From assembly GCF_028737255.1 (NCBI RefSeq), contig NZ_JAQZAN010000003.1, forward strand, positions 1-64,000: a stretch of DNA of 64,000 nucleotides, written 5' to 3'. Source of the DNA: Actinomycetospora straminea (GTDB lineage Bacteria > Actinomycetota > Actinomycetes > Mycobacteriales > Pseudonocardiaceae). The stretch's first letter is position 1, and each line of letters opens with the position of its first letter. Below are positions 62 to 32,904 of the stretch, one piece after another. A program made the position numbers and the translations under genes. The notes beneath the pieces were generated by a model. The model did not search any database. It was not told the origin of the DNA and worked only from the letters and a program-made list of their open reading frames with translations.

Positions 62-108
62 GCGAGGGACGCCTCCGCTGCGCCGGACGCAGCGAGGGAC
101 GCCCTCGC
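62..108. repeat. 47-bp palindromic element, copy B
   Basis: Imperfect palindrome beginning GCGAGGG and ending CCCTCGC, with an inner core of GCTGCG facing CGCAGC. It has the same length as the copies at 7439-7485 and 18692-18738 and matches the latter at 37 of 47 positions by eye. It lies in the untranslated left edge of the window; I see no gene in 1-263. Confidence 0.7.
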
Positions 109-263
109 TCCCACACCCGGCCCCGCGCACGGGCGGTCACGAGCGGGCGTGAACCCGCTCACCGCGGCGGTCGCGGCGCGCGCGGAGGGTTACCGTGGGC
201 GCCAGTGATCGTCCGGTACCCGCGCGAGCGGGACGGGAACGAGCCGAACGAGTGAGGTGGCGC

Positions 264-1238
264 GTGGGCACCGACGCCGGCGAGGACGCCGGGCGGTGGG
301 AGCAGACGTCCGGTGAGCCCGGGCCGTCCCCCACCCCTCGGGAAGGCTCACGACTCGCGGTGGGCGTGGTCTCCGCCGGCCGGGTCGGCGCGGTGCTGGG
401 CGCCGCGCTCGCGCAGGCCGGGCACCAGGTCGTCGCCGCCTCCGCCGTCTCCCGCGCGTCGCGGGCGCGCGCCGAGGAGCTCCTGCCCGGCGCCGCGATC
501 CTCCCGCCCGACGAGGTGGTCCGTCGCGCCGACCTCGCCCTCCTCGCGGTCCCCGACGACGTGCTCCCCGGCCTCGTCCGCGGGCTCGCCGCGTCCGACT
601 GCCTGCGCCCCGGCCAGATCGTCGTCCACACGTGCGGCGCCGCCGGGGTCGGCGTGCTCGCCCCCGCCGCCGAGCACGACGTGCTGCCGATCGCCCTGCA
701 CCCCGCGATGACGATCACCGGGCGCCGCGAGGACGTCGCGCGCCTGACCGGCGCCTGCGTCGGCGTCACGGGCCCGGAGCCGACGACGGAGGACGCCGAC
801 GCGGCCTGGTTGGTCGGCGAGGCCCTGGTCGTCGAGATGGGCGCGGAGCCCGTGCGCGTCCCGGAGGCCGTGCGCCCGCTCTACCACGCCGCCCTCGCCC
901 ACGGGGCGAACCACCTGGTCACGCTCGTGCGCGAGGCCGCCGACCTGCTCGCCGGCGCCGGGGTCGAGCCCGCCGAGCGGGTCCTCGCCCCGCTGCTGTC
1001 CGCCGCGCTCGACAACGCCCTGCGCCACGGCGACCGGGCGCTCACCGGTCCCGTCGTCCGCGGCGACGCCGGCACGGTGGCGATGCACCTGCGCCACCTC
1101 GACGACCGCGCGCCCGCCGCGGCCCCGCTCTACCGGGCCCTGGCCCGGCGCACCGCCGAGCGCGCCCGCGACGGCGGACTGGTCGACCCGGCCGCCGCCG
1201 CCGACGTGGTGGCCGCCCTCGAGAGGCACTCCCCGTGA
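264..1238 (+). CDS. Rossmann-like/DUF2520 domain protein
   Basis: 324-residue protein with an N-terminal Rossmann dinucleotide-binding region ([16 protein letters not shown]) followed by a helical DUF2520-type domain. This is the family found directly upstream of panC in mycobacteria (Rv3603c type). The fold resembles ketopantoate reductase and ProC, so a reductase step of pantoate synthesis is a fair inference but is not shown by the sequence. Start chosen at GTG 264 because an AGG lies 6 nt upstream; GTG 252 and GTG 195 are open alternatives. The stop overlaps the panC start as GTGA, so the two are translationally coupled. Confidence 0.85.
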
Positions 1239-2152
1239 CCCGACCCTCCAGCCTGCGCACCCACGACCTCGTCGGCCGCGCACGCCCGCAGTACGACGCC
1301 GGGCGCCTCACGGTGCACCGCGACCCGAACACCTTGCGCCGCGTCACCAAGGCCCTCCGCGGCGGCGGGCGGCGCGTCACGCTCGTGCCCACCATGGGCG
1401 CCCTGCACGAGGGCCACCGCGAGCTGATGCGCCGCGCCCGCGGCGTGCCCGGCGCCGCGACCGTCGTGTCGATCTTCGTGAACCCGAAGCAGTTCGGGCC
1501 GAACGAGGACTACGGGCGCTACCCGCGGGCCTTCGAGGGCGACCTCGAGATGTGCCGCGAGGAGGGCGTCGAGCTGGTCTTCGCGCCCGAGGTCGAGGAC
1601 ATGTACCCCGCCGGGTTCGCGACCTCGATCCACCCCGGCCCACTGGGCGACGAGCTCGAGGGCGCGATCCGCCCGGGTCACTTCGCGGGGATGCTGACGG
1701 TCGTCAACAAGCTCTTCGCGATCACGACGCCCGACGTCGCGTTCTTCGGCGAGAAGGACTACCAGCAGCTCACGCTCATCCGGCGCATGGTCCGCGACCT
1801 CGACATGGACCTCCACGTCGTCGGCGTCCCCACCGTCCGCGAGCCCGACGGCTTGGCGCTGTCGAGCCGCAACGCCTACCTGTCGGCCGACGAGCGCCAC
1901 GCCGCCGTCGCGCTGTCCGCCGCCCTGTCGGCCGGCCAGCACGCGGGTGAGCAGGGCGCGGCGGCCGTCCTCGACGCCGCGCGCGCCGTGCTCGTCACCG
2001 AGCCGTCGCTGCAGGTCGACTACCTCGAGCTGCGCGACGAGGACCTCGGTCCCACCCCCGACATCGGTCCGGCGCGGCTGCTGGTCGCCGCCCGGGCCGG
2101 CACGACCCGTCTGATCGACAACGCCGCGGTGTCCCTCGTGAGGAGAGTCTGA
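1235..2152 (+). CDS. panC: Pantothenate synthetase
   Basis: 305 residues. Condenses pantoate with beta-alanine using ATP, the last step of pantothenate synthesis in the cytoplasm. Family hallmarks: [10 protein letters not shown] at residues 52-61 (nucleotide-binding HIGH-type motif), [33 protein letters not shown]. Length is normal apart from about 25 extra N-terminal residues. GTG start overlaps the DUF2520 stop. Together with panD one base downstream and coaX it forms a pantothenate/CoA operon, the mycobacterial arrangement. Confidence 0.97.
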
Positions 2153-2153
2153 C

Positions 2154-2747
2154 GTGCAGCGCACGATGCTGAAGTCCAAGATCCACCGGGCGACGGTGAC
2201 GGACGCGGACCTGCACTACGTGGGGTCGGTGACCGTCGACGAGGACCTGATGCGCGCCGCGGACCTCCTGCCCGGCGAGCAGGTCGCCATCGTCGACGTC
2301 ACCAACGGCGCGCGCCTCGAGACCTACGTGATCACCGGGCCCGCGGGCTCCGGCGTCATCGGGATCAACGGCGCGGCGGCCCACCTCGTGCAGCCCGGCG
2401 ACCTCGTCATCCTCATCTCCTACGGCGTGATGGACGACGCGGAGGCCCGCACCTACCAGCCGCGGGTGGTGTTCGTCGACCAGCACAACCGCGTCCTCGA
2501 CCGCGGCGCCGACCCGGCCCACGTGCCCGACGCCGCGCCGACGACGTCGCTGCTGCGCCCGGGCACGGAGGCGACCGGCGCCCGTCCGGCCCGCCGGCAC
2601 GAGGCCGCCGCCGGCCCGGCGATGACGACGGTCGGCGGGAGCTGGGGCGCCGAGCCGGCCCGCGACGAGCGTCCCGCCCGGCGCCGCGACGCCGCCGAGA
2701 CCACCGACGCGCGACGGCTCGACGCGCTGCTCTCCGCGGACCACTGA
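2154..2747 (+). CDS. panD: Aspartate 1-decarboxylase with C-terminal extension
   Basis: Makes beta-alanine for PanC. The self-cleavage site Gly24-Ser25 (HYVGSVTV) that yields the pyruvoyl group is present, and the catalytic core is complete to about residue 120 (FVDQHNRVL). The protein is 197 residues, about 60 longer than the mycobacterial enzyme. The tail is rich in Ala, Pro, Arg and Thr and looks disordered. GTG start one base after panC; coaX follows after 24 bases. The tail could be a regulatory or degradation signal, but nothing in it is recognisable. Confidence 0.96.
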
Positions 2748-2771
2748 GGGCCCGGGCAGACGCGATCACCA

Positions 2772-3596
2772 GTGCTCCTCTGCGTCGACGTCGGCAACAC
2801 GCAGACCGCGCTCGCCCTCTACCCGCCCGAGGGGCCCGCGGTGTGGGACGCGCGCCTGCGCACCGAGCCCCGGGCCACCGGCGACGAGATCGCGCTGCTG
2901 GTCCGGGGCCTGCTCGGCGCCCGGGTCGGCGACGTGTCGGCGGTCGCCGCGCTGTCGACGGTGCCGGCGCTGATGCGCGAGCTGCGGGGGATGGTCGCGC
3001 GGCACTTCGCGGGCCTCGACCACCTGCTCGTCGAGCCCGGTGTGCGCACCGGTGTGCCGCTGCTGGTCGACAACCCCAAGGAGGTCGGCGCCGACCGCGT
3101 CGTCCAGGCCCTCGCCGTGTTCGAGCGCCACGGCGGGCCCTGTGTCGTCGTCACGTTCGGGACGTCGACGACGGTGGACGGGGTGTCGGCGCGCGGGGAG
3201 TTCCTCGGCGGGGCGATCGCGGCCGGGGTCGCGGTGTCCGCCGAGGCGCTCGCGGTGCGGGCCGCGGCGCTGCGCCCGGTCGAGCTGGTCGTGCCGCGTT
3301 CGGTGCTCGGGCGCAACACCGTCGAGAGCATGCAGGCCGGGCTGGTGCTCGGGGCGGCCGCGCAGGTCGACGGGCTCGTCGCCCGGGTGGGCCGCGAGAT
3401 CACCGCGCGCGACCCCGAGGGCCGCGCGCCGGTCGCCGTCGTCGCGTCGGGCGGGCTCGCGCCGGTGGTCGTCGACGAGTGCGCGACGATCACCGACCAC
3501 GTGCCCGACCTGACCCTGCTGGGCCTGCGCACGGTGCACCGGCGGTGGCAGGAGCGCCGCGACGACCGCGCCGCGAAGCGGGCCGCGCGGTCCTGA
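2772..3596 (+). CDS. coaX: Type III pantothenate kinase
   Basis: 274 residues. Phosphorylates pantothenate, the first step of CoA synthesis. ASKHA-fold motifs: DVGNTQT at residues 6-12 (phosphate binding), NPKEVGADR, TFGTSTTVDGV and GGAIAAGV. GTG start at 2772. It ends the pan operon; the 51-bp hairpin at 3610-3660 follows 14 bases later and faces the convergent GAF regulator, so it probably terminates both. Confidence 0.95.
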   Translation: MLLCVDVGNTQTALALYPPEGPAVWDARLRTEPRATGDEIALLVRGLLGARVGDVSAVAALSTVPALMRELRGMVARHFAGLDHLLVEPGVRTGVPLLVDNPKEVGADRVVQALAVFERHGGPCVVVTFGTSTTVDGVSARGEFLGGAIAAGVAVSAEALAVRAAALRPVELVVPRSVLGRNTVESMQAGLVLGAAAQVDGLVARVGREITARDPEGRAPVAVVASGGLAPVVVDECATITDHVPDLTLLGLRTVHRRWQERRDDRAAKRAARS

Positions 3597-3609
3597 GGCG
3601 TCTCGGGCG

Positions 3610-3660
3610 CGGTTACTGGCCCGTATCGCTCGGTGGGCGAGCGATACGAGCCGGTAACCG
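3610..3660. repeat. 51-bp hairpin element (GGTTACTGGC family), copy 1
   Basis: 23-bp arms starting CGGTTACTGG with only two G-U type mismatches and a 5-nt loop, between convergent coaX and the GAF regulator. A near copy of equal length lies at 38489-38539, also between convergent genes. It can act as a bidirectional terminator, but the sequence identity of the two copies exceeds what termination needs. Confidence 0.75.
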
Positions 3661-3673
3661 CCGGGAGGCGCGC

Positions 3674-5167
3674 TCAGACCGCCAGCTCGTCGCGCCGCGG
3701 GTCGCCGGCGGGCAGGAGGTGGCGCAGGCGCTCGGCGATCTCCGGGTCGTCACCGGCGTCCACCTGCGCCAGCGCCCACAGCGCCTCGGCGTCGCCCCGG
3801 CGCAGCACCGCCCCGCGCACGGCGACCTCGAGGTGGTCGCGCTCCTCGCGCACGCCCGGGGCGTCGGAGGCGGGCAGCAGGGCGCCGCGGCGCAGCACCT
3901 CCGGCGGCGGCAGCCGGCGCGCCCGGAGGGCCTCGCGGACGTGCAGGAAGTCGGCGTCGACGCGGGCGCGCAGCCGGTAGGGCTGGGTGCTGATGATCGA
4001 GGACCCGAGCGCCGCGCGCAGCCGGTGCACCTCGGAGCGCACGGTCACCGGGTTGCCGGCGTCGCCGTAGAGCGCCTGGGCGAGCCCGTCGGCGGTGAGG
4101 CCGTCGGGGTGCAGGGCGAGCACGACGAGCATCTCGGCGTGGCGCAGGCTCAGGCGCACCGGACGGCCGTCGAGGCGGGCGACCGGGCGCTCGGCCCCGA
4201 GGAACGGCAGCACGAGGCTCGGCCCCGACGACGCCCGCGGCGCGAGGCGCAGCAGCCACCCCTCGGCGAGGGGCTCGAGGACGCCCTCGCCGCGCTCGCC
4301 GAGGTCCACGCGCCCGCCGCCCTCGGGGATCGCGACCCGCTCGCCGAGCCAGTCGGCGGGCTGCGCGTCGATCACCCGCCCGCCGGGCGCGAGCAGGGCC
4401 CCGGGCTCGCCGCGCAGGCCGTCGAGGTGGGTCCGGTTGCGGGTGCGCAGGCGCTCGTCGCGCTCGACGAGGCGCGCCCGCAGGTGCACCTCGGCGAGCT
4501 CGGCCGCCGCCCTCACCAGGGCCAGCGTGCTCGGGTGGAACGTGCGCAGCGGGCCGGTGAGGTCGATGGCGGCGACGACCTCGCCGCTGTCGGGGTCGTG
4601 GATCGGGGCCGCCGCGCACGTCCACGCGTGGTAGAGCCGCACGAGGTGCTCGGCGGAGTGGATCTGCACCGCCCGCCCCGAGGCGAGCGCGGTGCCCATC
4701 GCGTTGGTGCCGATCGAGTCCTCGCTCCAGCGCGTGCCCTCGACCAGCGCGACGTCGTCGGCGCGGCGCAGGACGTCGGCGTGGCCCTCGCGCCAGAGGA
4801 TGTGCCCGCGCGCGTCGGTCACGATCATCATGTGCACGGCCTCGTCGGCGACGTCGAGCAGCGTGCGCCGCAGCAGCGGCAGCACCGGCGCGAGCAGGTG
4901 CCCGCCGCGGACGTCGTCGAGCTCGTGGGTGCCGAACACCTGCCGCGGCCGCCCGTGGTCGGGGTCGACGTGGGCGTCGAGCGAGCGGCGCCAGGACGCC
5001 GACACCACGTCGCGCGGCGAGGCGGGGCTCGCGGTGCCCGAGAGGACCGCGTCGCGGATGCGTTCGAGGAGGTGGGCGCGCTCGACCGGGTCGGAGGGTC
5101 CGAGCGGCAGCGTCCCCGGCACCGTCAGGCGGGGCGTGCCGCGCGCACGACGCTGGCTCCCCGGCAT
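3674..5167 (-). CDS. GAF-domain transcriptional regulator with winged-helix C-terminus
   Basis: About 497 residues. An N-terminal segment with ASWRRSLDAHVDPD and HVLRR-like text is followed by a GAF-type sensor (TDARGHILWREGHADVL ... GTRWSEDSIGTNAMGTAL ... HAWTCAAAPIHDPDSGEVV), as in AcoR-like activators. There is no sigma54 AAA domain. Instead the C-terminus carries a winged-helix region (GNPVTVRSEVHRLRAALG). Start taken at ATG 5167 behind a GGGGG tract; ATG 5260 is an alternative. It diverges from the aldehyde dehydrogenase gene, which it probably controls in response to alcohol or aldehyde. Confidence 0.8.
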   Translation of the reverse strand: MPGSQRRARGTPRLTVPGTLPLGPSDPVERAHLLERIRDAVLSGTASPASPRDVVSASWRRSLDAHVDPDHGRPRQVFGTHELDDVRGGHLLAPVLPLLRRTLLDVADEAVHMMIVTDARGHILWREGHADVLRRADDVALVEGTRWSEDSIGTNAMGTALASGRAVQIHSAEHLVRLYHAWTCAAAPIHDPDSGEVVAAIDLTGPLRTFHPSTLALVRAAAELAEVHLRARLVERDERLRTRNRTHLDGLRGEPGALLAPGGRVIDAQPADWLGERVAIPEGGGRVDLGERGEGVLEPLAEGWLLRLAPRASSGPSLVLPFLGAERPVARLDGRPVRLSLRHAEMLVVLALHPDGLTADGLAQALYGDAGNPVTVRSEVHRLRAALGSSIISTQPYRLRARVDADFLHVREALRARRLPPPEVLRRGALLPASDAPGVREERDHLEVAVRGAVLRRGDAEALWALAQVDAGDDPEIAERLRHLLPAGDPRRDELAV

Positions 5168-5329
5168 CGGCGCCCCCTGCGACCCGTCGACGGGAGGTGC
5201 CGCCGTGGCACGCGGCGTCCCGCCGGGGACGCGAGTCCCCGTCGGTCGATCGTGCTCCATCGTCCGGGGTAAGGCAACCCTACACCGAATCCTCGTGTGC
5301 GCCCTGCGAGGTCCGAAAGTGCCGCGGAT

Positions 5330-5341
5330 GCGTTGCAACGC
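5330..5341. promoter_or_regulatory. Candidate operator GCGTTGCAACGC
   Basis: Perfect 12-bp palindrome in the divergent gap between the GAF regulator and the aldehyde dehydrogenase, with a further half-site GTGCAAC at 5344-5350. The position suits binding by the neighbouring regulator. Inference only. Confidence 0.45.
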
Positions 5342-5403
5342 CCGTGCAACCCTCGCGTCCCTAGTGTCCGCGCTCACGTAGCCCACGACGTGGAGGGACA
5401 CAG

Positions 5404-6927
<1,524 letters not shown>

Positions 6928-6964
6928 TCGGTCCGCGGGTTCCCCGGAGGTGGAGGTGGTCGCC

Positions 6965-7402
6965 ATGACCGAGATCAGCACCAGCACCGACGTCACCGAG
7001 CAGGTGCCGGAGGTGCCGGGGTCGGGCACCGGGCGGGTCGCCCTGTCGCCGCAGGCCGCCGAGCTCCTGGTGTCGCTCACCGCGGTCCACGGGCCCCTGA
7101 TGTTCCACCAGTCCGGCGGGTGCTGCGACGGCAGCGCGCCGATGTGCTACCCGGACGGGGACTTCAAGATCGGGGGCTCCGACGTGCACCTCGGTGACCT
7201 GGTCGTGGAGGGCCTGGAGAGGCCGATCGGCTTCTACATGTCCGCCTCGCAGTACGAGTACTGGAAGCACACGCACCTCACCGTCGACGTGGTGAAGGGT
7301 CGCGGCAGCGGGTTCTCGGTGGAGGCGCCCGAGGGCGTCCGCTTCATCATCCGCTCGCGCCTGTTCACCGACGACGAGCTGCGCGAGCTGGGCGACCGGT
7401 AG
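6965..7402 (+). CDS. DUF779 family protein
   Basis: 145 residues. Conserved DUF779 core with HQSGGCCDGSAPMCYP at about residues 49-64 and a run to RFIIRSRLF near the C-terminus. The family almost always sits next to acetaldehyde dehydrogenase genes, and its biochemical role is not established. ATG at 6965 chosen because a GGAGGTGGAGG tract precedes it; an in-frame GTG at 6950 is less likely. The CysCys pair may bind a metal (inference). The stop codon lies in the loop of a 7-bp hairpin (7393-7409). Confidence 0.9.
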   Translation: MTEISTSTDVTEQVPEVPGSGTGRVALSPQAAELLVSLTAVHGPLMFHQSGGCCDGSAPMCYPDGDFKIGGSDVHLGDLVVEGLERPIGFYMSASQYEYWKHTHLTVDVVKGRGSGFSVEAPEGVRFIIRSRLFTDDELRELGDR

Positions 7403-7438
7403 CCGGTCGCTGTACGGGCACGATCCGACCGAGTAGGA

Positions 7439-7485
7439 CCGAGGGGCGCCCCGGCTGCGTGCGACGCAGCGGGGGCGCCCCTCGC
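7439..7485. repeat. 47-bp palindromic element, copy C
   Basis: Hairpin with 12-bp GC-rich outer arms, a mismatch, then GCTGCGT-gcg-ACGCAGC. It ends CCCTCGC like copies A and B and has the same total length. It follows DUF779 and may serve as its terminator. Confidence 0.7.
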
Positions 7486-7525
7486 ACGTCAGCCCCCGAC
7501 GGCCCCCTGACGAAGGAGCTCGACG

Positions 7526-8161
7526 ATGAGCACCCCCTCGACGACGCCCTCGACGACACCCTCGACGACCCCCTCGACCACGCTGCGCGAGCTGACGGGC
7601 ATGCCCGCCGAGCCCGCGTCCCTGCGCGAGTCGGCGCTGGTCATGATCGACCTGCAGAACACCTACACCCGCGGCGTCATGGCCCTCGAGAACGTCGAGC
7701 CGGCGATCGACGAGGCCGCCGTCCTGCTCGACCGGGCGCGCAGCGCGGGCATCCCGATCGTCCACGTCCAGCACGACGCGGGGGAGGGCTCGCCGTACGA
7801 CGTGCGGGCCGAGATCGGGGCGATCGTCGACCGCGTCGCGCCGCGCGAGGGCGAGCACGTGGTCGTCAAGAACTTCCCGAACTCCTTCGTCGGCACCGAC
7901 CTCGAGGCGCACCTGCGCGGCGTGGGCGCGTCGAACCTGGTGCTGGCCGGGTTCATGACGCACATGTGCGTGAACTCCACCGCGCGCGGCGCGTTCAACG
8001 CCGGATTCGCGCCCTCGGTGGTCGCCGGCGCGACGGCGACCCGCGCCCTTCCCGGACCGGACGGTACGGTTTCGGCCTCGTCGCTGCAGCGTGCGAGCCT
8101 CGCTGCACTGGCCGACGTGTTCGCCGTCGTCGTTCCGGACAGCGCCGCGATCCCCGACTGA
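7526..8161 (+). CDS. Cysteine hydrolase, isochorismatase family
   Basis: 211 residues. Isochorismatase-like hydrolase fold with the usual triad: Asp in LVMIDLQNTY, Lys in VVVKNFPNSF and Cys in GFMTHMCVNSTARGA, plus the FVGTDLEAHL segment. Substrate unknown; relatives cleave isochorismate, nicotinamide or N-carbamoyl compounds. Good ribosome site (GAAGGAGCTCGACG) before ATG. The N-terminus carries a 12-bp tandem repeat giving a Ser-Thr-Pro tract of about 18 residues that is not part of the fold. Confidence 0.88.
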   Translation: MSTPSTTPSTTPSTTPSTTLRELTGMPAEPASLRESALVMIDLQNTYTRGVMALENVEPAIDEAAVLLDRARSAGIPIVHVQHDAGEGSPYDVRAEIGAIVDRVAPREGEHVVVKNFPNSFVGTDLEAHLRGVGASNLVLAGFMTHMCVNSTARGAFNAGFAPSVVAGATATRALPGPDGTVSASSLQRASLAALADVFAVVVPDSAAIPD

Positions 8162-8217
8162 CGCGGAATTGTCGGTATGCGCCGGGCATGAGGTGGTGAA
8201 ATCGCGGCGTGGATCAC

Positions 8218-8247
8218 TCGACAAACGCGTCGTCGCACAAATAAGGT
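8218..8247 (+). promoter_or_regulatory. Candidate lsr2 promoter
   Basis: -35 TCGACA at 8218-8223 and -10 TAAGGT at 8242-8247 with an 18-bp spacer, in an unusually AT-rich gap. GGAGGT at 8272 is the ribosome site for the ATG at 8285. Confidence 0.55.
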
Positions 8248-8284
8248 CCGGCCACATTCCCGGTCGGTGTGCGGAGGTCGCGTG

Positions 8285-8659
8285 ATGGCGCAGAAAGTCG
8301 TGGTGTCGCTCGTCGACGATCTGGACCAGTCGGAAGCCGACGAGACGGTCGAGTTCGGGATCGACGGCGCCACGTACGAGATCGACCTGTCCGAGGCGAA
8401 CGCCTCGGCGCTGCGCGACGCGCTCGCCGACTACGTCGCGCACGCCCGGCGCAGCGGGGGCCGGCGCCGGTCGTCGTCGGCGTCCTCGTCGGGCTCCACC
8501 GGCGGGCGGCGGGGCAGCGGTGGCGGCGGGGGCCGGGCGGCGGTCGACCGCGAGCAGAACCAGGCGATCCGCGAGTGGGCCCGCAAGCAGGGGATGACGG
8601 TCTCGGAGCGCGGGCGCATCCCCAGCGAGGTCAGCGAGGCGTACCACAAGGCCCACTGA
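8285..8659 (+). CDS. lsr2: Lsr2 nucleoid-associated protein
   Basis: 124 residues. H-NS-like xenogeneic silencer that binds AT-rich DNA. N-terminal dimerisation part ([28 protein letters not shown]), Ser/Gly-rich linker at about residues 60-85, then a DNA-binding domain with the RGRIPSEV hook that enters the minor groove. Length slightly above the mycobacterial protein because of the linker. Location two genes before clpC matches mycobacteria, although lysS is absent here. It is a plausible silencer of the AT-richer cargo at 48-55 kb. Confidence 0.95.
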
Positions 8660-8664
8660 CGTCC

Positions 8665-15946: not shown

Positions 15947-17053
15947 ATGGTCGAGACGCTGACCCGCGAGCAGGTCCTGGCGCACCGCGTCGCCGCGCAG
16001 GGCCTGCACCGCGACCGGCCGCTGGGGCCCCTGTTCTCGCTGGGTCTGCAGGACGCGGGGCCCACCGCACGGCTCGCGATCGCCGCACGGTCCGACGGCG
16101 ACCCCGACCCGGTGGCGCTCGGGCTGGTCGACGGTTGGACCCACCGAGGCGCGCCGCACCACCACCCGCCCGCCGAGCGCCCCGCCATCGCCGCAGCCGC
16201 GCGTCCCTTCGACGACGCCGACGCGGCGGCGCGCCTGAACTGGAGCGGACCCGAGCAGCGCCGGGTCGGCATCCCCGCCCGCGAGGCGATCGACCGGGCG
16301 GCGGACGCGCTCGCCGAGGTCGTCACCGAGCCGATGACCAAGGGTGCCGCCAGCGGCGCGGTGACGGAGCTGCTGCCCGACGCCCTGCTGCGCGACTGCC
16401 GCGGCTGCGCCACCGTCCACGTCAACGAGCAGCTCTTCCGGCTCTCGGCGTTCCCGGTCGGCGTCGGCCTCGACCCGACGGGCCGGACGCTGCTGCTGAT
16501 CCCGCCGCCGCCCGGCTGGGAGCGCCCCGTCGAGGGCGACCCGGCGCGGGCGGCGCGCCTGGTGCTCGACTACCTGCGGGTGCTGGGGCCCGCCGGGCCG
16601 CGCGAGGTCGCCGACTTCGTCGGGACGTCGACGGCGGCGTTCGCGCCCGCATGGGAGGCGGCGCTGCCAGAGCTGGTCGAGGTGGCCGTCGAGGGGCGGC
16701 CGGCGTGGCTGCCCGCCGACGACCTCGACGCCGCCCTGGCCGCCCCGGACCCCGACGTCGTGCGGTTCCTGCCTCCGCTCGACCCGATGCTGCAGGCCCG
16801 CGACCGCCCGCTCCTCGTTCCCGACGAGGCGCTGCGCAAGGACCTCTACAAGATCATCGGTAACCCCGGGGCGCTGCTGGTGGACGGGGAGATCGTCGGC
16901 ACCTGGCGGCCCCGGGCGTCGGGGAAGAAGCTGACGCTCGAGGTCGCGCCCGTGGTGCCGCTCGCCCCGGACGTGCGGGCGCGCCTCGACGACGAGGCGG
17001 AGCGCGTGGCCGCCGCCCGGGGCCTGCGGCCGGCGGGGCTCACGGGGGTCTAA
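15947..17053 (+). CDS. AlkZ-like winged-helix DNA-binding protein
   Basis: 368 residues of the HTH_42/AlkZ family, whose studied members are DNA glycosylases acting on interstrand crosslinks or alkylated bases. N-terminal VLAHRVAAQGLHRD, a helical core with GPAGPREVADFVG, and LLPPLDPML-type text (FLPPLDPMLQARDRPLLV) followed by GEIVGTWRPR. I do not see the QxQ catalytic motif of characterised AlkZ/YcaQ enzymes, so activity is uncertain. Start ATG 15947 has better spacing from CAGG than ATG 15917. Confidence 0.82.
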   Translation: MVETLTREQVLAHRVAAQGLHRDRPLGPLFSLGLQDAGPTARLAIAARSDGDPDPVALGLVDGWTHRGAPHHHPPAERPAIAAAARPFDDADAAARLNWSGPEQRRVGIPAREAIDRAADALAEVVTEPMTKGAASGAVTELLPDALLRDCRGCATVHVNEQLFRLSAFPVGVGLDPTGRTLLLIPPPPGWERPVEGDPARAARLVLDYLRVLGPAGPREVADFVGTSTAAFAPAWEAALPELVEVAVEGRPAWLPADDLDAALAAPDPDVVRFLPPLDPMLQARDRPLLVPDEALRKDLYKIIGNPGALLVDGEIVGTWRPRASGKKLTLEVAPVVPLAPDVRARLDDEAERVAAARGLRPAGLTGV

Positions 17054-17060: not shown

Positions 17061-17107
17061 GCGAACGTGGCGTTCGCTGCTCCTAAGCGAGCAAAGCCCC
17101 CGTTGAT
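17061..17107. repeat. 47-bp palindromic element, copy H (decayed)
   Basis: Begins GCGAACG and matches copy F (32784-32830) at 31 of 47 positions in register. The right end reads GTTGAT instead of GTTCGC, so the outer palindrome is lost. An inner GCAGCGAACG-tgg-CGTTCGCTGC hairpin (17059-17081) remains. Lies between convergent genes. Confidence 0.55.
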
Positions 17108-18294: not shown

Positions 18295-19290
18295 TCAGCC
18301 TACGTCGCCCGCCTCGCCCGGCAGCGCGAAGCGACCGTCGGCCAGCTGCTCGACGAGGCCGTCGACGAGCAGCGAGTCGAGACACCGCGAGCGCTGCGCC
18401 GGGTCGGTGAGCCAGGCCTTCTCGAGGGCCTCCGCGGTGACCGGTCCCGGAGCCCCGCGCAGGACGTCGAGCAGCCGCCCGCGCACCTGCCGGTCGGTGC
18501 CCGCCCAGGTCTGGGCCTTGGGCACCGGGCCGTCCCACGCCGGGCGCCCCAGCCGCTGCCAGGCGCACAGGCGCACCACCGGGCAGCCGCCGCACCGCGG
18601 CCCGCGGGCGACGCACACCGTCGCGCCGAGCTCCATCAGCGCCGCCGACATCGTCGCCGCGTCCTCGTCCCGCGGGGCGGCGAGGGGAGCAGCGAGGGTC
18701 ACGTCCGCTGCGTCCGACGCAGCGGACGTGACCCTCGCCCCCGGCAGCAGGGCCTCGACGTCCGCGAGGTCCCGCGAGGCGGCCGGCCCGGCCCCGGCGC
18801 GCCCGTGGACGGCGCGGGCGACGACGCGGCGGACGTTGGTGTCGACGACCGGCACCCGCTGCCCGTGGGCGAACGCCGCGACCGCGCGGGCGGTGTAGGT
18901 GCCGATCCCGGGCAGCGACTCGAGGGTGTCGACGTCGGTGGGCACGACGTCGTCGTGGTCGGCGGCGATGGCCTGCGCGGCCGCGTGCAGGCGCAGCGCC
19001 CGGCGCGGGTAGCCGAGCTTGCCCCAGGCCCGCAGCACGTCGGCGGCGGGCGCGGCGGCCATCGCCGAGGGACGGGGCCAGCGCTCGAGCCACGCGCGCC
19101 ACGGCTCCTCGACCCGCGCCACCGGCGTCTGCTGGAGCATGATCTCGCTCACGAGCACGCCCCACGGCGTCGTCCCGGGGCGGCGCCAGGGCAGGTCGCG
19201 GGCGTGCGCACGGAACCACGGGACGAGGACGTCGGCGAGCGGGGTGTCGTCGGCGGCGGGTGCGGCGGCGGCGGACGTGGTGGTGCCCAT
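18295..19290 (-). CDS. mutY: A/G-specific adenine glycosylase MutY
   Basis: 331 residues. Removes adenine opposite 8-oxoguanine. Catalytic Glu49 (SEIMLQQTPV), HhH motif LPGIGTYTARAV (126-137) and Asp150 (VPVVDTNVRR), then the Fe4S4 ligands C226-x6-C233-x2-C236-x5-C242. Residues 185-200 (ARVTSAASDAADVTLA) are an insertion encoded exactly by a 47-bp palindrome and are not part of the normal enzyme; they sit just before the MSAALMELGA helix. The C-terminus is short, without an obvious full NUDIX-like 8-oxoG domain. Confidence 0.95.
   Translation of the reverse strand: MGTTTSAAAAPAADDTPLADVLVPWFRAHARDLPWRRPGTTPWGVLVSEIMLQQTPVARVEEPWRAWLERWPRPSAMAAAPAADVLRAWGKLGYPRRALRLHAAAQAIAADHDDVVPTDVDTLESLPGIGTYTARAVAAFAHGQRVPVVDTNVRRVVARAVHGRAGAGPAASRDLADVEALLPGARVTSAASDAADVTLAAPLAAPRDEDAATMSAALMELGATVCVARGPRCGGCPVVRLCAWQRLGRPAWDGPVPKAQTWAGTDRQVRGRLLDVLRGAPGPVTAEALEKAWLTDPAQRSRCLDSLLVDGLVEQLADGRFALPGEAGDVG
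18692..18738. repeat. 47-bp palindromic element, copy A, inside mutY
   Basis: Perfect palindrome with 23-bp arms around a single central base, beginning GCGAGGGTCACG. Core GCTGCGTCCGACGCAGC differs by one base from the core of copy C at 7439-7485. Entirely inside the mutY frame without breaking it. Confidence 0.85.
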
Positions 19291-21844: not shown

Positions 21845-21910
21845 CGTAGGACGGACCCCCGACAGTGCCGGGACGCGCGGCCGAGGCGTGCGCGGTTGTC
21901 GGCCCGGGGA

Positions 21911-23152: not shown

Positions 23153-23168
23153 GGGGCGTCCCGGGTCG

Positions 23169-24325: not shown

Positions 24326-24388
24326 CTTTCCCGGAACCGCACCCACGCCCCGCTGCGTCTTCCTACGATCGCCGCGAGGAGGTGACCG

Positions 24389-26134: not shown

Positions 26135-26952
26135 GGGGCGTCCTGCCGATGACGCTGGGCTCGCGGTTCGCGGGCGCCCGGCTCGACGTCGGTCAGTACG
26201 TCGCGCTCTGGCGCCACCTCGGGTTCGACGCGCGCCCGGCCGCCCTGCACGTCCTCGACCACGGTCGCACCTACGCCGAGCGCGACGCCCTCGACGCCGC
26301 GGCCTGGCGGCGCCTCGCGGCGCAGGGGCTGCTCGACGACCGCGGCGCGCCCGACCCGGGTCTCGCCGACGCCCTCGGGGTCCTCGCCCGCCCGGCCTGC
26401 GAGCTCGACGTCGTGGTGCTCGCCGACGGGCACGCCGCGCAGCCGACGCTCGCGGCCGCCCGCGGGACCCTCGGCGTCGTCGCCCGCCTCGACACCGAGG
26501 GACTGCTCCTCGAGACCGTCGACCCGCACGACCTCGCCGGCGCCCTGCTCGCCCGCCTCCCCGACGCGCGCGCCGCGCCCGGGGTGCCGATGTCGCTGCC
26601 CGCCGACGCCCTGTTCGGCCCGGGCCTGACCCTCGACGACCGCTGCCGCCGGGTCCGGCGCGCCGGCGCGTCCGCGCACCACGTCGAGCGCCTGCGGGCG
26701 CTGTGGGCGCGCACCCCGGACCGCGCCATGACCTTCGGGGTGACCGCCCGCGACGCCGACGGCGTGCCGCGCCGGGGTCCGCGCACCGTCACCGTGCTCG
26801 ACACCGAGGTCGGCCGCGTCGCCTGGGGTCTCGACGCCGGCGGTCGCCGGGTCCTCGTCCACCCGATCGACCGGCCGCGGCTGCGCCACGAGCTCGCGGC
26901 CCTGCTCGACGGCCACGCCACCGACGTCGTGCGCCGTCGCGGGTCGGCGTAG
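26131..26952 (+). CDS. EspG-family ESX secretion-associated protein
   Basis: 273 residues. EspG-like layout: an early LDVGQYVALWRHLG helix, ELDVVVLADG strand followed by repeats of mixed alpha/beta structure, and GRVAWGLDAGGRRVLVHPIDRPRLRHELAALLD at the end. EspG proteins bind PPE tips in the cytoplasm before secretion. GTG start overlaps the PPE-like stop (GTGA), so the pair is a unit. ATG 26149 is an alternative start. Confidence 0.75.
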   Translation: MRGVLPMTLGSRFAGARLDVGQYVALWRHLGFDARPAALHVLDHGRTYAERDALDAAAWRRLAAQGLLDDRGAPDPGLADALGVLARPACELDVVVLADGHAAQPTLAAARGTLGVVARLDTEGLLLETVDPHDLAGALLARLPDARAAPGVPMSLPADALFGPGLTLDDRCRRVRRAGASAHHVERLRALWARTPDRAMTFGVTARDADGVPRRGPRTVTVLDTEVGRVAWGLDAGGRRVLVHPIDRPRLRHELAALLDGHATDVVRRRGSA

Positions 26953-26978
26953 CAGCCCCCGCGGACCGCGACGATCCG

Positions 26979-27025
26979 GCGAAGGGCACCCCTCGCCCAT
27001 CTCTCCGACCGACGGTGCCCTTCGC
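26979..27025. repeat. 47-bp palindromic element, copy D
   Basis: 12-bp perfect arms GCGAAGGGCACC / GGTGCCCTTCGC around a non-palindromic 23-nt centre. 39 of 47 positions match copy E at 32858-32904, including the centre. Lies between convergent espG-like and VWA genes. Confidence 0.75.
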
Positions 27026-27044
27026 TCAGACACCGCGTCCGCCC

Positions 27045-28037
27045 CTACCGCAGCACCGCGCGCACCGCCGCCGGGGCGTCCGAGGGCTTGAACAGCGGCA
27101 CCGACCGCCCGCCCCCGGCCGCGGCGAGGCGCGCGCAGGAGATCCGGGCCTCGTCGTCGTCGACCGTCACGAGCGTGTGCACCCGCGCCGGTCCCGACGC
27201 GCCGGCGACGGGCGCGGGGTCCTCGCCCTCGTTCCACGCCCCGTCGGTGAGGACGATGACGTCGGCGTGCGGCACCCGCGCCGCGGTGGCCTGGGCGAGC
27301 GCGGTGCGCAGGCCGAGCGCGAGGTCGGTGGTGGAGCCGCCGCGCAGGTCGAGCAGCGCGTCGAGCACCGCCGACGCGGGGGCGGGGGAGTGCAGGTGGC
27401 GCAGCAGCACCGCCCGCGACCAGAACGCCACGACGGCGAGCTCGTCGTCGGTGCGCAGGCCCGCGGCGAGCGCGCCGGCCGTCGTCACCGCTGTCGTCAG
27501 CGGCTTGCCGGCCACCGACCCCGAGGCGTCGACGAGCAGCACGATCGCCCGCCCCGGGGAGCGCCAGCCGCGCCAGCGCAGGTCCTCGGCGCGGATGGGG
27601 CGGTGCTCCAGGGACCGTTCGAGGGTGGCGTCGAGGTCCAGGTCGAGGCCGTCGCCGGCGACGGTCGCGAGCCGGCTCGACCCCCGCCGCTCCGTCTCGC
27701 CCGCGCGCGCCGGCGGCACGAGCAGGCGCACCGCGAGCCGCCGGGCCGCCGCGCGCAGGGCGGGGTCGGTGGCGCGGGCGAGGTCGGCGAGGAGGTCGAC
27801 GGTGGCGTCGGGGTCCTCCTCGTAGGCGCCCGACACCGCGGCCTCGTCGAGCACCCCGACCGTCGGGGTGACCTGCTCGAGGTCGTCGTGGCGTCGCTGC
27901 AGGTCGGCGCGGGTCTCGGTGCGCCGGGACTGGTCCCGCAGGAGCTCCTCGACCTCCTTGGGGTCGGTGACGACGCGCGGCGGTGCCCCGGGCGAGCGGC
28001 CCGACCCGGGCGGGGGCGGCGCCGCGTCGGGGCTCAG
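27045..28037 (-). CDS. VWA-domain protein (MoxR partner)
   Basis: About 330 residues. C-terminal von Willebrand A domain with an intact MIDAS: AIVLLVDASGSVAG, GGSTTDLAL and VLTDGAWNEG. The N-terminal half is helical and Arg/Asp-rich. Members pair with MoxR ATPases to assemble or insert metals into enzymes. No ATG, GTG or TTG start precedes the conserved N-terminal helix; a CTG at 28035-28037 overlapping the MoxR stop (CTGA) is favoured, GTG 27854 being the alternative. Likely works on the alcohol dehydrogenase or another enzyme of this operon (inference). Confidence 0.82.
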   Translation of the reverse strand: MSPDAAPPPPGSGRSPGAPPRVVTDPKEVEELLRDQSRRTETRADLQRRHDDLEQVTPTVGVLDEAAVSGAYEEDPDATVDLLADLARATDPALRAAARRLAVRLLVPPARAGETERRGSSRLATVAGDGLDLDLDATLERSLEHRPIRAEDLRWRGWRSPGRAIVLLVDASGSVAGKPLTTAVTTAGALAAGLRTDDELAVVAFWSRAVLLRHLHSPAPASAVLDALLDLRGGSTTDLALGLRTALAQATAARVPHADVIVLTDGAWNEGEDPAPVAGASGPARVHTLVTVDDDEARISCARLAAAGGGRSVPLFKPSDAPAAVRAVLR

Positions 28038-29023
28038 GCTTTTCCCGGGTCACCGTCCTCGGAGCCGAACTCGTCGACCGGCGCGCTCGCCGCCCACAGC
28101 TCGGCGACGACCTCCTCGACCGTGCGCGTCGAGCCCTCGAGCAGCTGCACCCGTCCGGACAGCGCGGCCAGCGCGGCGTCGGTGCCCGTCGTCTCCGCGG
28201 CCGGGGCGAGGCGGCCCGCGAGCGGCACGTCGCGCAGCTCGGCGAGCGAGGCGGCGACGGCGACGAGGTCGAGCGCGCCGCGCACCGACGAGCCCAGCCG
28301 CAGGTCCCGGTGCTCCCGCGTCGCCCGCGTCGCCCGGACCGCGCGCTCCACGAACGCCGCGTCGACGACGCCGTGGTCGCGGCGCACGATCGCGGTCTCC
28401 TCCTCGGCGCTCTGGTGGGCGAACCCGACACGGCAGGAGCGGTCGTAGAGCGCGGGGGTGATGCGCCCGGTGCCGACGGCGTCCGAGGGGTTCATGGCCG
28501 CGACCAGCCGGAAGCTCGGCGCGGCGTCGACGACCCCGAGGCGCGGCACGTGCAGGCGCCGCTCGGAGAGCACGCCGAGCAGCACGTTGAGCGTCTCCTC
28601 GGGGACGCGGTTGAGCTCCTCGACGTAGAGCAGGGCGCCCGTGGTCAGGGCGCGCACGAGGGGGCCGGGCACGAAGTTCTCGGGCCGGTAGTCCTCGGTG
28701 AGCACGCGGGAGGGGTCGTGGTGGCCGACGAGGCGCGCCGGGGACAGCTCGGCGTTGCCCTCGACGAGCTCGAGGCCGACGCCGGCGCCCTCGGCGAGCG
28801 CGCGCAGCAGGGTCGTCTTGCCGGTGCCCGGCGGGCCCTCGAGCAGGATGCTGCGCCCGGCGGCGAGCGCGGCGGCGATGACCTCCGACTCGCGCACGCG
28901 CCCGACGACGCGCGCGCGGGACGCGTCGATCATCGCGCGCACCGGGAGGGGGCCGGCGGTGGGCAGACCGGGGACGGCCCCGGCGTCCACGAGGGACACC
29001 GGGGCCGCGGAACCGTTCGTCAC
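28034..29023 (-). CDS. MoxR-type AAA+ ATPase
   Basis: 329 residues. Walker A EGPPGTGKTT, Walker B LLYVEELNRVPEE, sensor I VAAMNPSDAVG and arginine-finger region ALYDRSCRV are present. It is a chaperone-like ATPase that works with the VWA protein encoded immediately downstream. Start GTG 29023 (ATG 28933 would remove an unconserved leader). 27 bp after the alcohol dehydrogenase, same strand. Confidence 0.9.
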   Translation of the reverse strand: MTNGSAAPVSLVDAGAVPGLPTAGPLPVRAMIDASRARVVGRVRESEVIAAALAAGRSILLEGPPGTGKTTLLRALAEGAGVGLELVEGNAELSPARLVGHHDPSRVLTEDYRPENFVPGPLVRALTTGALLYVEELNRVPEETLNVLLGVLSERRLHVPRLGVVDAAPSFRLVAAMNPSDAVGTGRITPALYDRSCRVGFAHQSAEEETAIVRRDHGVVDAAFVERAVRATRATREHRDLRLGSSVRGALDLVAVAASLAELRDVPLAGRLAPAAETTGTDAALAALSGRVQLLEGSTRTVEEVVAELWAASAPVDEFGSEDGDPGKA

Positions 29024-29049
29024 GGGTGTCGGATACCTCGGATCGGGGT

Positions 29050-30174
29050 TCAGTCGAAGACCACGACGCCGCGGATGTTCTTGCCCGCGTGCATGTCCTC
29101 GTAGCCCTGGGCGATCTCGTCGATCTTGTAGCGCTTGGTGACCAGCTCGTCGAGCTTGAGCTTGCCGGCGTTGTAGAGGTCGAGCATGCGCGGGATGTCG
29201 GCCTTCGGGTTCGACGAGCCGAACAGCGCGCCCTTGAGCTGCTTCTCGAACAGGGTCAGCTCGCCGATCGGGATCGGCACCCCGATCTCGGTGATGTCGC
29301 CGAGGCCGGTGACGACGACCGTGCCCTGCTTGCGGATCGCGGCGAACGCCTCGCCCACGTGCTCGGGCTTGGTGATGCCGATGGTGACGAGCGCGGAGTC
29401 GGCGCCCTGGCCGTTGGTGAAGCCCTTGGCGATCTCGGTGGCCTCCTCCATCGACTCGACCGCGTGGGTCGCGCCGAGCTCGAGGGCCTTCTCGCGCTTG
29501 AACGCGACCGGGTCGACCGCGATGACGTTGGCCGCGCCCGCGTGCGCGGCGCCCTGGACGGCGTTGGCGCCGATGCCGCCGATGCCCTGGATGATCACCG
29601 TGTCGCCCGGGCTCACCGCGGCGGCGTTGACCGCCGTGCCCCAGCCGGTGCCGACCGAGCAGCCGAGCAGGCAGGTGACCTCGAGGTTGGTGTCCTGCGG
29701 GACCTTGATCGCCGAGTCGACGGCGACGGTCGTGTACTCGCTGAAGGTCGAGATGCCGCACATCTGGCCGACGTTGCTGCCGTCCTCGAGGTGCAGGCGG
29801 GTGGAGTCCTCCTCCCAGCGGGTGCCCGCGAGGAGGTTCGCCCCGAGGTCGCAGAGGTTGGAGTGGCCGGTCGCGCACCAGCGGCAGTGTCCACAGGCCG
29901 GCAGGAACGAGAAGAGGACCTTGTCGCCGACCTCGAAGCCCTTGGTGTTCGGGCCGACCGACTCGACGATGCCGCCGCCCTCGTGGCCGCCGGCGAACGG
30001 GTAGGTGCCGACGGGGATGTCACCGGTGGCGATGTGGTCGTCGGAGTGGCACAGACCCGAGGCGACCATCTTCACCCGGATCTCGTCCTGCCGCGGGTCG
30101 TCGACCTGGATCGTCGCCGTCTCGTACTTGCCGGGGGCCTGACGGACGAGAGACGTCCGGCACGTGATGGACAA
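29050..30174 (-). CDS. NDMA-dependent zinc alcohol dehydrogenase
   Basis: 374 residues of the class III-like family in which NAD(H) stays bound and NDMA is an artificial acceptor. Catalytic zinc: CHSDDH and GGHEGGG; structural zinc: ACGHCRWCATGHSNLCDLGANLL, with spacing CxxCxxCx(n)C of the family. NAD fold GIGGIGANAVQGA. TTG start at 30174 with GAGGAG upstream. Head of an operon with MoxR and VWA genes, suggesting use of alcohols whose dehydrogenase needs assembly help. Confidence 0.9.
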   Translation of the reverse strand: MSITCRTSLVRQAPGKYETATIQVDDPRQDEIRVKMVASGLCHSDDHIATGDIPVGTYPFAGGHEGGGIVESVGPNTKGFEVGDKVLFSFLPACGHCRWCATGHSNLCDLGANLLAGTRWEEDSTRLHLEDGSNVGQMCGISTFSEYTTVAVDSAIKVPQDTNLEVTCLLGCSVGTGWGTAVNAAAVSPGDTVIIQGIGGIGANAVQGAAHAGAANVIAVDPVAFKREKALELGATHAVESMEEATEIAKGFTNGQGADSALVTIGITKPEHVGEAFAAIRKQGTVVVTGLGDITEIGVPIPIGELTLFEKQLKGALFGSSNPKADIPRMLDLYNAGKLKLDELVTKRYKIDEIAQGYEDMHAGKNIRGVVVFD

Positions 30175-30337
30175 CGCTGACCACTCCTCGCGTAGCGAAA
30201 CCGTCGAATGACTGGCGCGACTCTATGTCTGTCCTCACACCTTGGGAAGGGGCTTCCCGAACGATCGATCGGTTGGCGAGGAGGCGAGTCCCGACGTCTC
30301 GGCGAGGGCGGATCCGGCGTTCCGTAGGATCCGGGCG

Positions 30338-31738
<1,401 letters not shown>

Positions 31739-31742
31739 CGCC

Positions 31743-32774
31743 ATGGCCGGCAACTCCCGCCGCCCCGGGGCCCGTCGCAACCCGGGCTCGAAGAAGGGTC
31801 CGACGAAGGGCTCGGGCGGCAAGGGCCGTAGGAGCCTGGAGGGCAAGGGCCCGACCCCGCCCGCCGAGAAGCGCCCGAACCACAAGGCCTACCGCTCGGA
31901 CGGCGCGTCGTCCTCGACGTCGCGGAGCTCGGCGACCCGCCGGCCCGCCGGCGACGAGCGCGGCCCCGCCCGTCGCGGCCCGTCGCGGCGCGAGGACCCG
32001 GACGGCCCGCAGGTCGTGCTCGGTCGCAACCCCGTGGTCGAGAGCCTGCGCGCGCACAGCCCGGCGACCGCGCTCTACGTCGCGCAGAACATCGACGTCG
32101 ACGACCGCGTGCGCGAGGCGATCAAGATGGCGTCCGAGCGGGGCATCTCGGTGCTCGAGGTCCCGCGCGGCGACGTCGACCGGATGGCCGACGGCGCCCT
32201 GCACCAGGGGCTCGCGCTCGCGGTGCCGGCGTTCGAGTACCTGCACCCCGACGACCTGCTCGAGGAGGCGCGCCAGCGGGCGCACCTGGCGCGGGTCGAG
32301 CCGCTGCTCGTGGCGCTCGACGGCGTGCAGGACCCCCGCAACCTCGGTGCGGTGCTGCGCTCGGCGGCGGCGTTCGGCGCGCACGGGGTGCTGCTACCGC
32401 TGCGCCGCTCGGTCGGCGTGACGCCGGTGGCCTGGCGGACCTCGGCGGGTGCCGCCGCGCGCGTGCCCGTCGGGCGCGCGACGAACCTGTCGCGGACCCT
32501 GACCAGCTGGCTCGACGAGGGCCTCGTCGCGGTCGGGCTGGACGGCGAAGCGGGCACCGACATCGACCACCTCGACGACGTCGCCGGCCCCGACGCCGCC
32601 CGCGGTCCGCTGGTGCTGGTCGTGGGCTCGGAGGGCAAGGGCCTGTCGCGCCTCGTGCGCGAGACCTGCACGGGCGTGGTGTCGATCCCCATGGCGGGCG
32701 ACGTGGAGTCGCTCAACGCCTCGGTGGCCGCCGGCGTGGCCCTGGCCGAGGTCGCGAGGCGCCGGCGCGGCTAG
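31743..32774 (+). CDS. rlmB: 23S rRNA 2'-O-ribose methyltransferase (SpoU/TrmH family)
   Basis: 343 residues. A Lys/Arg/Gly-rich disordered N-terminus of about 85 residues, then a substrate-binding L30e-like part ([13 protein letters not shown]) and a SPOUT knot domain with [30 protein letters not shown] and [16 protein letters not shown], the three family motifs. ATG 31743. Target guanosine inferred from family. Confidence 0.92.
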
Positions 32775-32783
32775 GGAGTGGCA

Positions 32784-32830
32784 GCGAACGGGCGGCTCGC
32801 TGCCTCTACGCGCCGGAACTCCCCGTTCGC
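32784..32830. repeat. 47-bp palindromic element, copy F
   Basis: 9-bp arms GCGAACGGG / CCCGTTCGC at the outer ends. 31 of 47 positions match copy H at 17061-17107. Lies directly after rlmB. Confidence 0.7.
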
Positions 32831-32857
32831 TCGCGGACCTCCACGAGCGGGGTTCTG

Positions 32858-32904
32858 GCGGCGGGCGCCCCTCGCCCGTCTATCCGAGCGACGGGGCCCG
32901 TCGC
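32858..32904. repeat. 47-bp palindromic element, copy E
   Basis: Arms GCGGCGGGCGCC / GGGGCCCGTCGC (10 of 12 paired) plus an inner CCGAGCGACGGG-g-CCCGTCGCTCGG hairpin at 32884-32908. It overlaps the 3' end of the cyclase gene and supplies its last codons and stop. Confidence 0.7.

What the first reader, a model, noticed from the sequence alone, without database searches (positions are those of the whole stretch)
62..32904. A family of exactly 47-bp palindromic elements
Seven copies of identical length: 62-108, 7439-7485, 18692-18738, 17061-17107, 26979-27025, 32784-32830 and 32858-32904. Most open with GCGA and close with TCGC. They fall into three subfamilies by their centres (core GCTGCGT-CGACGCAGC; D/E; F/H). 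D and E match at 39 of 47 positions including the non-palindromic middle, which termination alone does not explain. They may be small dispersed elements, RNA structural modules or protein-binding sites.
Basis: seen in the sequence. Interest (0 to 1): 0.8.

Follow-up and report, generated by a model that had tools for sequence, protein, structure and literature searches.

The report
Helically spaced 47-bp dispersed repeats
The short palindromic repeats seen here belong to related families of 47-bp elements scattered mostly behind genes in one bacterial genus, and neighbouring copies tend to sit a set number of DNA-helix turns apart, which suggests that they work as DNA sites for an unknown protein rather than as simple RNA hairpins.

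Summary
Elements 62, 7439 and 18692 belong to family F1: 88 copies in the 6.29-Mb genome, reversed-pattern control 0. 17061/32784 belong to F2 (91 pattern hits, control 0) and 26979/32858 to F3. All are 47 bp, laid out 17+13+17. Matches were confined to one genus: F1 9 of 61, F2 11 of 150, F3 7 of 200 genomes searched.

The new point is spacing. Of 62 distinct adjacent F1 pairs under 125 bp, 61 lie within 2 bp of 75.2+10.6n. Eleven of twelve couples with F2 or F3 under 125 bp fit too, including inverted F2 pairs. Variable symmetric positions show no compensatory pairing. F1 favours gene 3' ends over promoter-only gaps. One copy was gained in frame inside mutY. No Y1/RAYT transposase was found (0 of 18 genus genomes), though 23 of 40 F2 copies carry a REP-like GTAG.

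Best reading: BIME/REPIN-like DNA modules bound in helical phase by an unidentified protein. The protein and the copying mechanism are inferred, not shown.

The parts
62..108 (.). F1 copy A (49-mer with flanking A..T), at the contig start; orthologous site holds 3 copies spaced 75 bp in G012 and 1 in G011
7439..7485 (+). F1 copy B, between the DUF779 gene (6950-7402) and the isochorismatase-domain gene (7526-8161); F1-type element at the orthologous site in G008, G012, G011, G010, G005, G017 and G002
18692..18738 (.). F1 copy C, nearly perfect palindrome (46 of 47), in frame inside mutY
18295..19290 (-). mutY-like DNA glycosylase gene carrying copy C in frame (about 22 extra codons against most congeners)
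   Evidence: HhH-GPD; the name mutY is my reading
17061..17107 (+). F2 copy, 8 bp after the stop of the AlkZ-like gene 15947-17053, convergent with the SIR2-family gene
26979..27025 (+). F3 copy between the convergent EspG-like gene (ends 26952) and VWA gene (3' end 27045)
32784..32830 (+). F2 copy, 10 bp after the stop of the SpoU methylase gene 31743-32774
32858..32904 (+). F3 copy, starting 74 bp after the start of the F2 copy; F3 present at the orthologous site in G012, G011, G010, G017, G002; the segment is missing in G008

Best explanation
These are modules of a genus-specific, BIME/REPIN-like set of dispersed DNA elements. Each module is a 47-bp two-fold site (17-bp palindrome, 13-bp joint, 17-bp palindrome), mostly placed behind genes. 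Most likely an unidentified protein binds each module through its constant blocks. Neighbouring modules are kept, or created, only when they lie on the same face of the helix, so that bound proteins can touch; hence spacings of 75.2+10.6n bp. At gene 3' ends such complexes would act as roadblocks, terminators or supercoiling barriers. Shown: families, length, restriction to one genus in the genomes searched, quantised spacing, 3'-end placement, a gain in coding DNA, no Y1 transposase found. Inferred: the protein, the same-face contacts, the effect on transcription or topology, and the copying mechanism.
For: Families: F1 88 copies at up to 3 mismatches, reversed-pattern control 0; 74 ungapped profile hits with an empty score gap, none in shuffled DNA; F2 91 pattern hits, control 0; F3 26 profile hits in 2.37 Mb from 11 genomes, none in shuffled DNA. 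Spacing: 61 of 62 distinct adjacent F1 pairs under 125 bp lie within 2 bp of 75.2+10.6n, linear fit 75.17+10.63n. In one search, four inverted F2 pairs, one direct F2 pair and one F2-F3 couple are at 74, two F3 pairs at 75, an F3 pair at 65, an F2-F3 couple at 64 and an F1-F2 couple at 86. Spacers differ between arrays, judged by eye. Constant blocks are near-invariant while variable positions do not co-vary. Placement: F1 in 15 of 51 convergent, 19 of 208 co-directional and 5 of 122 divergent gaps of 60 bp or more; in other genomes 14, 20 and 0 of 34 occupied gaps, one locus counted twice.
Against: No protein was identified and no binding was tested. Most off-75 spacings cluster at 84-88, so the period itself rests on few values (64, 65, 96, 96, 98, 107, 117). 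Several arrays look like tandem duplications including flanks, so the spacing could be a by-product of how duplications arise. Couples at 113, 158, 177 and 180 are off the grid or only roughly on it. Of 17 odd one-sided pattern rows, seven were not checked. Strong predicted hairpins at gene ends also fit plain terminators. Gene calls are my own crude ones.
Confidence: 0.4

Rival explanations
1. Selfish REPIN/MITE-like elements copied by an unknown enzyme acting in trans; the phased spacing records a ruler in insertion or duplication (a complex bound to an existing copy directs the next event at a fixed helical distance), not a function.
For: Copy numbers swing between congeners: F1 0 in 9 of 18 genus genomes and 59 in G005 (at most 1 mismatch); F2 71 hits in G017 against 3 in its close relative G002. 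In-frame gain in mutY and an in-frame copy in a lysR-type gene. Four arrays read by eye as tandem duplications with variable breakpoints but the same length class (L183, L196, L233, L240). On the reverse strand 23 of 40 F2 copies have GTAG two bases before the hairpin, the tag of RAYT-linked REPs.
Against: No Y1_Tnp in 18 genus genomes. No target-site duplication could be made out at mutY (by eye). No exact match to the F1 or F2 patterns in IMG/VR contigs. Other transposase families were not tested. Inverted F2 pairs at 74 bp are not simple tandem duplications. F1 has no GTAG (0 of 74).
Confidence: 0.3
2. Ordinary bidirectional intrinsic-terminator hairpins that share sequence by descent.
For: 3'-end placement; strong predicted RNA folds, -31.6 to -56.8 kcal/mol for 60-nt segments at 20 loci; at site B the three genomes of the other clade carry different GC-rich hairpins; F2 is a GC-rich hairpin followed by TTCTA, often within 40 bp of a stop codon, reading with the genes in 4 of 5 co-directional gaps and away from the nearer stop in 7 of 10 convergent ones.
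Against: No T-run follows F1. Symmetric variable positions pair less often than chance at several places (9/39, 15/33, 23/25). A terminator needs neither constant primary sequence nor helical spacing. Copy C lies inside an open reading frame.
Confidence: 0.2
3. RNA structural modules acting on the transcript (processing or stability).
For: F1 orientation followed transcription in 16 of 19 co-directional gaps with a clear orientation (16 of 21 without that filter; one tie left out in each) in the set where orientation was defined.
Against: In other genomes only 13 of 20 rows agreed (p about 0.13; two of the disagreeing rows are the same locus). Orientation did not follow the nearer gene in convergent gaps (13 of 27). 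No compensatory changes. Helical spacing has no RNA reason.
Confidence: 0.08

Closest known systems
REPINs (REP doublets, Pseudomonas fluorescens; PMC3116915, passages seen)
   Same: Dispersed extragenic units made of two inverted smaller palindromes; characteristic neighbour distances (71 and 110 bp there); tandem clusters that repeat flanking sequence
   Different: No RAYT/Y1 transposase found in the genus; unit only 47 bp; very few solo F1 halves; several discrete spacings in steps of about 10.6 bp, shared by three families
GTAG-tagged REPs (PMC3733652, passages and section 6 seen)
   Same: F2, read on the reverse strand, often has GTAG just before a GC-rich hairpin (23 of 40 copies)
   Different: Tag absent in F1 and in 17 of 40 F2 copies (mostly CTAG or ATAG instead); no transposase of the linked kind found
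BIMEs/REPs of enterobacteria and Xanthomonas (PMC2817692, abstract and one passage seen; gyrase and terminator roles partly recalled)
   Same: Regularly spaced palindromes outside genes, reported as binding sites of several proteins
   Different: Different sequence and lineage; helical quantisation not mentioned in the passages and listings I saw
CGTC-tagged REPs incl. RPE-4/RPE-6 and dRS3 (PMC3733652, section 6 and passages seen)
   Same: Palindromic repeats without a dedicated transposase; some inserted inside open reading frames
   Different: Those have 8-9-bp stems with AT pairs first, 4-5-nt loops, a terminal CGTC-like tag and a CCA tail; F1 ends are GCGA/TCGC
Rickettsia palindromic elements (search listing; otherwise recalled)
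   Same: In-frame insertion in protein genes
   Different: Here mainly intergenic (two clear intragenic cases among 74 F1 copies), unrelated GC-rich sequence

Membership tests
REPIN/RAYT system | Cognate Y1 (RAYT) transposase in the genome | tested here: not met
   PF01797: 0 of 18 genus genomes; control genomes ring in 5 of 14
REPIN/RAYT system | GTAG-type tag at each REP | tested here: inconclusive
   F1: 0 of 74 copies hold GTAG or CTAC; F2: 23 of 40 copies have GTAG on the reverse strand beside the hairpin; F3 not counted
REPIN/RAYT system | Unit of two inverted palindromic halves | tested here: met
   17+13+17 layout seen in F1, and less regularly in F2 and F3
REPIN/RAYT system | Solo halves as decaying remnants | tested here: not met
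   F1 half-profile hits of 18 bits or more: 184 in full copies, 6 outside, 1 in shuffled DNA; 4 of the 6 belong to a damaged, a cut-off or an F2 copy
BIME | Clusters of regularly spaced palindromes in extragenic DNA | tested here: met
   62 F1 pairs under 125 bp at discrete spacings; mostly intergenic
BIME | Binding of gyrase, Pol I or IHF (recalled) | not testable with these tools
   Needs biochemistry
CGTC REP | Terminal CGTC-like tag, 8-9-bp stem with AT first, CCA tail | tested here: not met
   F1 compared by eye with section 6 of PMC3733652; F1 ends are GCGA/TCGC
Intrinsic terminator | GC-rich hairpin followed by a T-run | tested here: not met
   F1 is mostly followed by TCC or TGC; F2 has only a TTCTA-like stretch
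Intrinsic terminator | Gene 3'-end placement | tested here: met
Known Rfam RNA | Covariance-model match | tested here: not met
   Only a tRNA reached a gathering score in the window

The most novel reading that the evidence does not exclude
A previously undescribed chromosome-organising system: interchangeable families of 47-bp sites read by a dedicated, still unknown protein that polymerises or docks along one face of the helix, marking gene 3' ends, with helical phase the conserved trait while sequence families turn over between species.
Probability: 0.25. Interest if true: 0.85.

Novelty: new variant of a known kind. Interest (0 to 1): 0.62.

Why it matters
If the phase rule is real, it is a sequence-only test of whether palindromic intergenic repeats act as DNA sites: the spacing follows the helix, not the sequence family or orientation. 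It gives a concrete bait (a 47-mer) and a concrete prediction (half-turn changes break the effect) for finding the protein behind REP-like elements in a lineage where no RAYT was found.

Tried and rejected
Whole-hairpin and half-hairpin covariation for F1: neither supported. Carriage by phages: no exact match of the F1 or F2 pattern in IMG/VR. A count of inverted repeats by total length did not separate 47 bp from background. EM orientation of F1: the fit was not better than that of shuffled symmetric columns, and its agreement with transcription was not significant elsewhere, so I give it little weight. Odd spacings in the raw pattern listing (17 rows at 62-73, 80-83, 88 and 92): ten of the 17 were held as loci and none had two full copies at that distance; seven were not checked. 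A real 88-bp pair exists at another locus (L329). An F3 profile trained from five seeds drifted into F1 and was redone with F1 and F2 places left out. The 192-bp F1 gap holds a damaged copy (L195) and reads as two steps of 96. A rare unrelated hairpin family (U) has spacings of 81-82 bp, off the F1 grid. The F3 pattern missed the own genome's F3 copies, so it undercounts.
Full report
Observation. Pairwise identity confirms the three groups, including the 39 of 47 match, which is between 26979 and 32858. Near-perfect overall palindromy applies only to the first group, and there best to 18692.

Families. Searching the own genome with the F1 pattern gives 88 copies with up to 3 mismatches and 0 for the reversed control. 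In 844,370 bases of own sequence (the window plus 40 stretches, 33 of them around listed copies, one around a core hit, six arbitrary) a profile finds 74 copies, all ungapped by construction, at 40-73 bits, with nothing from 8 to 40 bits and nothing in shuffled sequence; one damaged copy and one cut by a contig end were missed. F1 reads AGCGARGG xyz C... GCTGC.T...A.GCAGC ...G xyz CCYTCGCT. The pair 17061/32784 is F2: 17 copies in the same stretches and 91 pattern hits in the genome (a copy can be hit on both strands, as one in G011 was, so hits may slightly exceed copies). The pair 26979/32858 is F3: 26 profile hits in 2,373,496 bases from 11 genomes, 6 of them in the own genome, none at that score in shuffled sequence. 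All three are 47 bp in a 17+13+17 layout, and F2 and F3 mostly have a TCT-containing centre.

Distribution. F1 at up to 1 mismatch was found in 9 of 61 genomes, all in the own genus (9 of 18 genus members; the nine without include two that are only 59% and 83% complete), 0 of 43 outside it. In the order it was found in 1 of 298 genomes, where only the own genome and G003 represented the genus. F2: 11 of 150 genomes, all in the genus, 0 of 132 outside. F3: 7 of 200, all in the genus (this pattern missed the own copies), with profile hits in genomes with and without F1. By mutY sequence, judged by eye without a tree, the F1 carriers look like one clade (with G004, which has none at 1 mismatch). 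F1 and F2 numbers are independent: G002 has 18 F1 and 3 F2 hits, G017 18 and 71, G008 5 and 81, although G002 and G017 are 92-97% identical over the main matches compared. The host family is judged from mutY best hits (Tamaricihabitans, Saccharothrix, Amycolatopsis) to be Pseudonocardiaceae; the genus name was not established (Actinomycetospora is a guess from recall of GC content and size).

Gain and loss. Copy C lies in frame in mutY. Of 17 congeners, 14 lack an insertion there, G008 has a decayed in-frame copy, and G012 and G004 have a shorter in-frame insert that I read as a remnant (inference). A second copy lies in frame within a gene that scores as a LysR-type regulator; no orthologue was compared. 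Three further copies overlapped doubtful gene calls. At orthologous sites around mutY, B is F1-like in all eight F1-clade genomes compared, own included; the F2 of site D is in six of the eight, degenerate in G011 and absent in G002. In 255 kb of G002, no F2 reaches 18 bits; at three of three further G017 F2 sites G002 lacks an intact copy, one of them showing a damaged remnant, whereas both F1 sites compared are occupied in both species.

Spacing. In the own genome neighbouring F1 copies are 75, 76, 84-87, 96, 98, 107, 117 and 192 bp apart. Pooling held loci and counting identical pairs once, 63 pairs remain: 75 (33), 76 (5), 84-88 (19), 96 (2), 98, 107, 117 and 192. Of the 62 below 125 bp, 61 are within 2 bp of 75.2+10.6n, the exception being 88; the fit is 75.17+10.63n. 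The loci came from own and other stretches and from pattern searches that allowed every spacing from 62 to 123 bp, so the gaps between classes are not a search effect. The 192 gap holds a damaged copy. A Rayleigh test on the 24 values other than 75/76 gives p about 7e-9, but this is inflated by the 84-88 cluster and by shared arrays; the claim of a period rests on the discreteness of 64-65, 74-76, 84-88, 96-98, 107 and 117. Couples with F2 or F3: F2-F2 inverted 74 (four: two own, two in G017), F2-F2 direct 74, F2-F3 74 and 64, F3-F3 65, 75 and 75, F1-F2 86; off or only roughly on the grid: 113, 158, 177, 180. Two more F3 pairs at 74 and 75 appear in the G006 rows. Four arrays read by eye as tandem duplications including flanks, with variable breakpoints but like length; inverted F2 pairs cannot be simple tandem duplications.

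Structure. If F1 acted as one RNA hairpin, its variable symmetric positions should co-vary. Across 102 distinct copies they do not, and several pair less often than expected (9/39 z -4.1, 15/33 z -3.8, 23/25 z -3.4); with one copy per array (65) the same three remain low (z -2.7, -2.9, -3.5). Against this, the outermost pair 1/47 is above chance (z 4.8, from one doubly changed copy set of few variants) and 13/35 leans up (z 1.9). Half-hairpins show at most a weak excess (5/13, z 2.1). F2 differs: on the reverse strand GTAG stands two bases before the hairpin in 23 of 40 copies, CTAG in 9 and ATAG in 4, which recalls GTAG-tagged REPs; F1 has none (0 of 74).

Context. With crude gene calls, F1 occupies 15 of 51 convergent, 19 of 208 co-directional and 5 of 122 divergent gaps of 60 bp or more (the stretches were chosen around copies, which should raise all three alike). 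In other genomes 34 occupied gaps split 14/20/0, one locus counted twice. F2 is often within 40 bp of a stop codon; of 15 own copies with called neighbours it reads with the genes in 4 of 5 co-directional gaps and away from the nearer stop in 7 of 10 convergent ones (my tally). F1 orientation agreed with transcription in 16 of 19 co-directional gaps (16 of 21 without a margin filter) in the set that defined it and in 13 of 20 rows elsewhere, the latter not significant.

Interpretation. A spacing rule that ignores sequence family and orientation but follows the helix points to DNA-level action. The simplest picture is a protein on each 47-bp unit with contacts between neighbours on one face, at gene ends. 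Nearly as open is a copying or duplicating enzyme that measures in helical turns. Comparison with what I could see: REPINs have fixed neighbour distances and tandem clusters (PMC3116915, passages); BIMEs are regularly spaced (PMC2817692, passages); CGTC REPs seem to lack a transposase (PMC3733652, passages and section 6); the one RepRanger passage seen (PMC12306157) names three other actinomycetes. My searches listed no paper that I recognised as dealing with this family or with helical spacing of such repeats; the library holds only open-licence papers, and ranked lists were cut.

Noticed in passing
3610-3661 and 38488-38539: T family: 52-bp near-perfect palindromes GGTTACTGGC..GCCAGTAACC filling gaps between convergent genes; also in L193:3956, L212:9172 and G012; the 38488 copy is cleanly absent in G008, G010 and G011.
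   Followed up: partly
41651-41726 to beyond 64000: Colinearity with G008 stops at base 41726, the 3' end of tRNA-Thr, and resumes near 72901 of the contig: a probable integrated island of about 31 kb.
   Followed up: no
E-site orthologues in G008, G012, G010, G017, G002: U family: short GATGCTTCGGTTTCCGAAGCATC-like hairpins, three in a row in G017 at 82-bp steps.
   Followed up: partly
L163 (G012) near 34385 in the joined frame, and G002:C1 near 29302: A CCTATCGGCGTGCTC-containing insert inside the F2 hairpin loop in two species.
   Followed up: no
L197:10009-10055: F1 copy in frame inside a LysR-type regulator gene.
   Followed up: partly
G002 against G017: Close relatives with equal F1 numbers (18 each) but 3 against 71 F2 pattern hits.
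   Followed up: partly
17061, 32784 and other F2 copies: On the reverse strand F2 often reads GTAG-AA-hairpin, as GTAG-tagged REPs do, although no Y1 transposase was found.
   Followed up: partly
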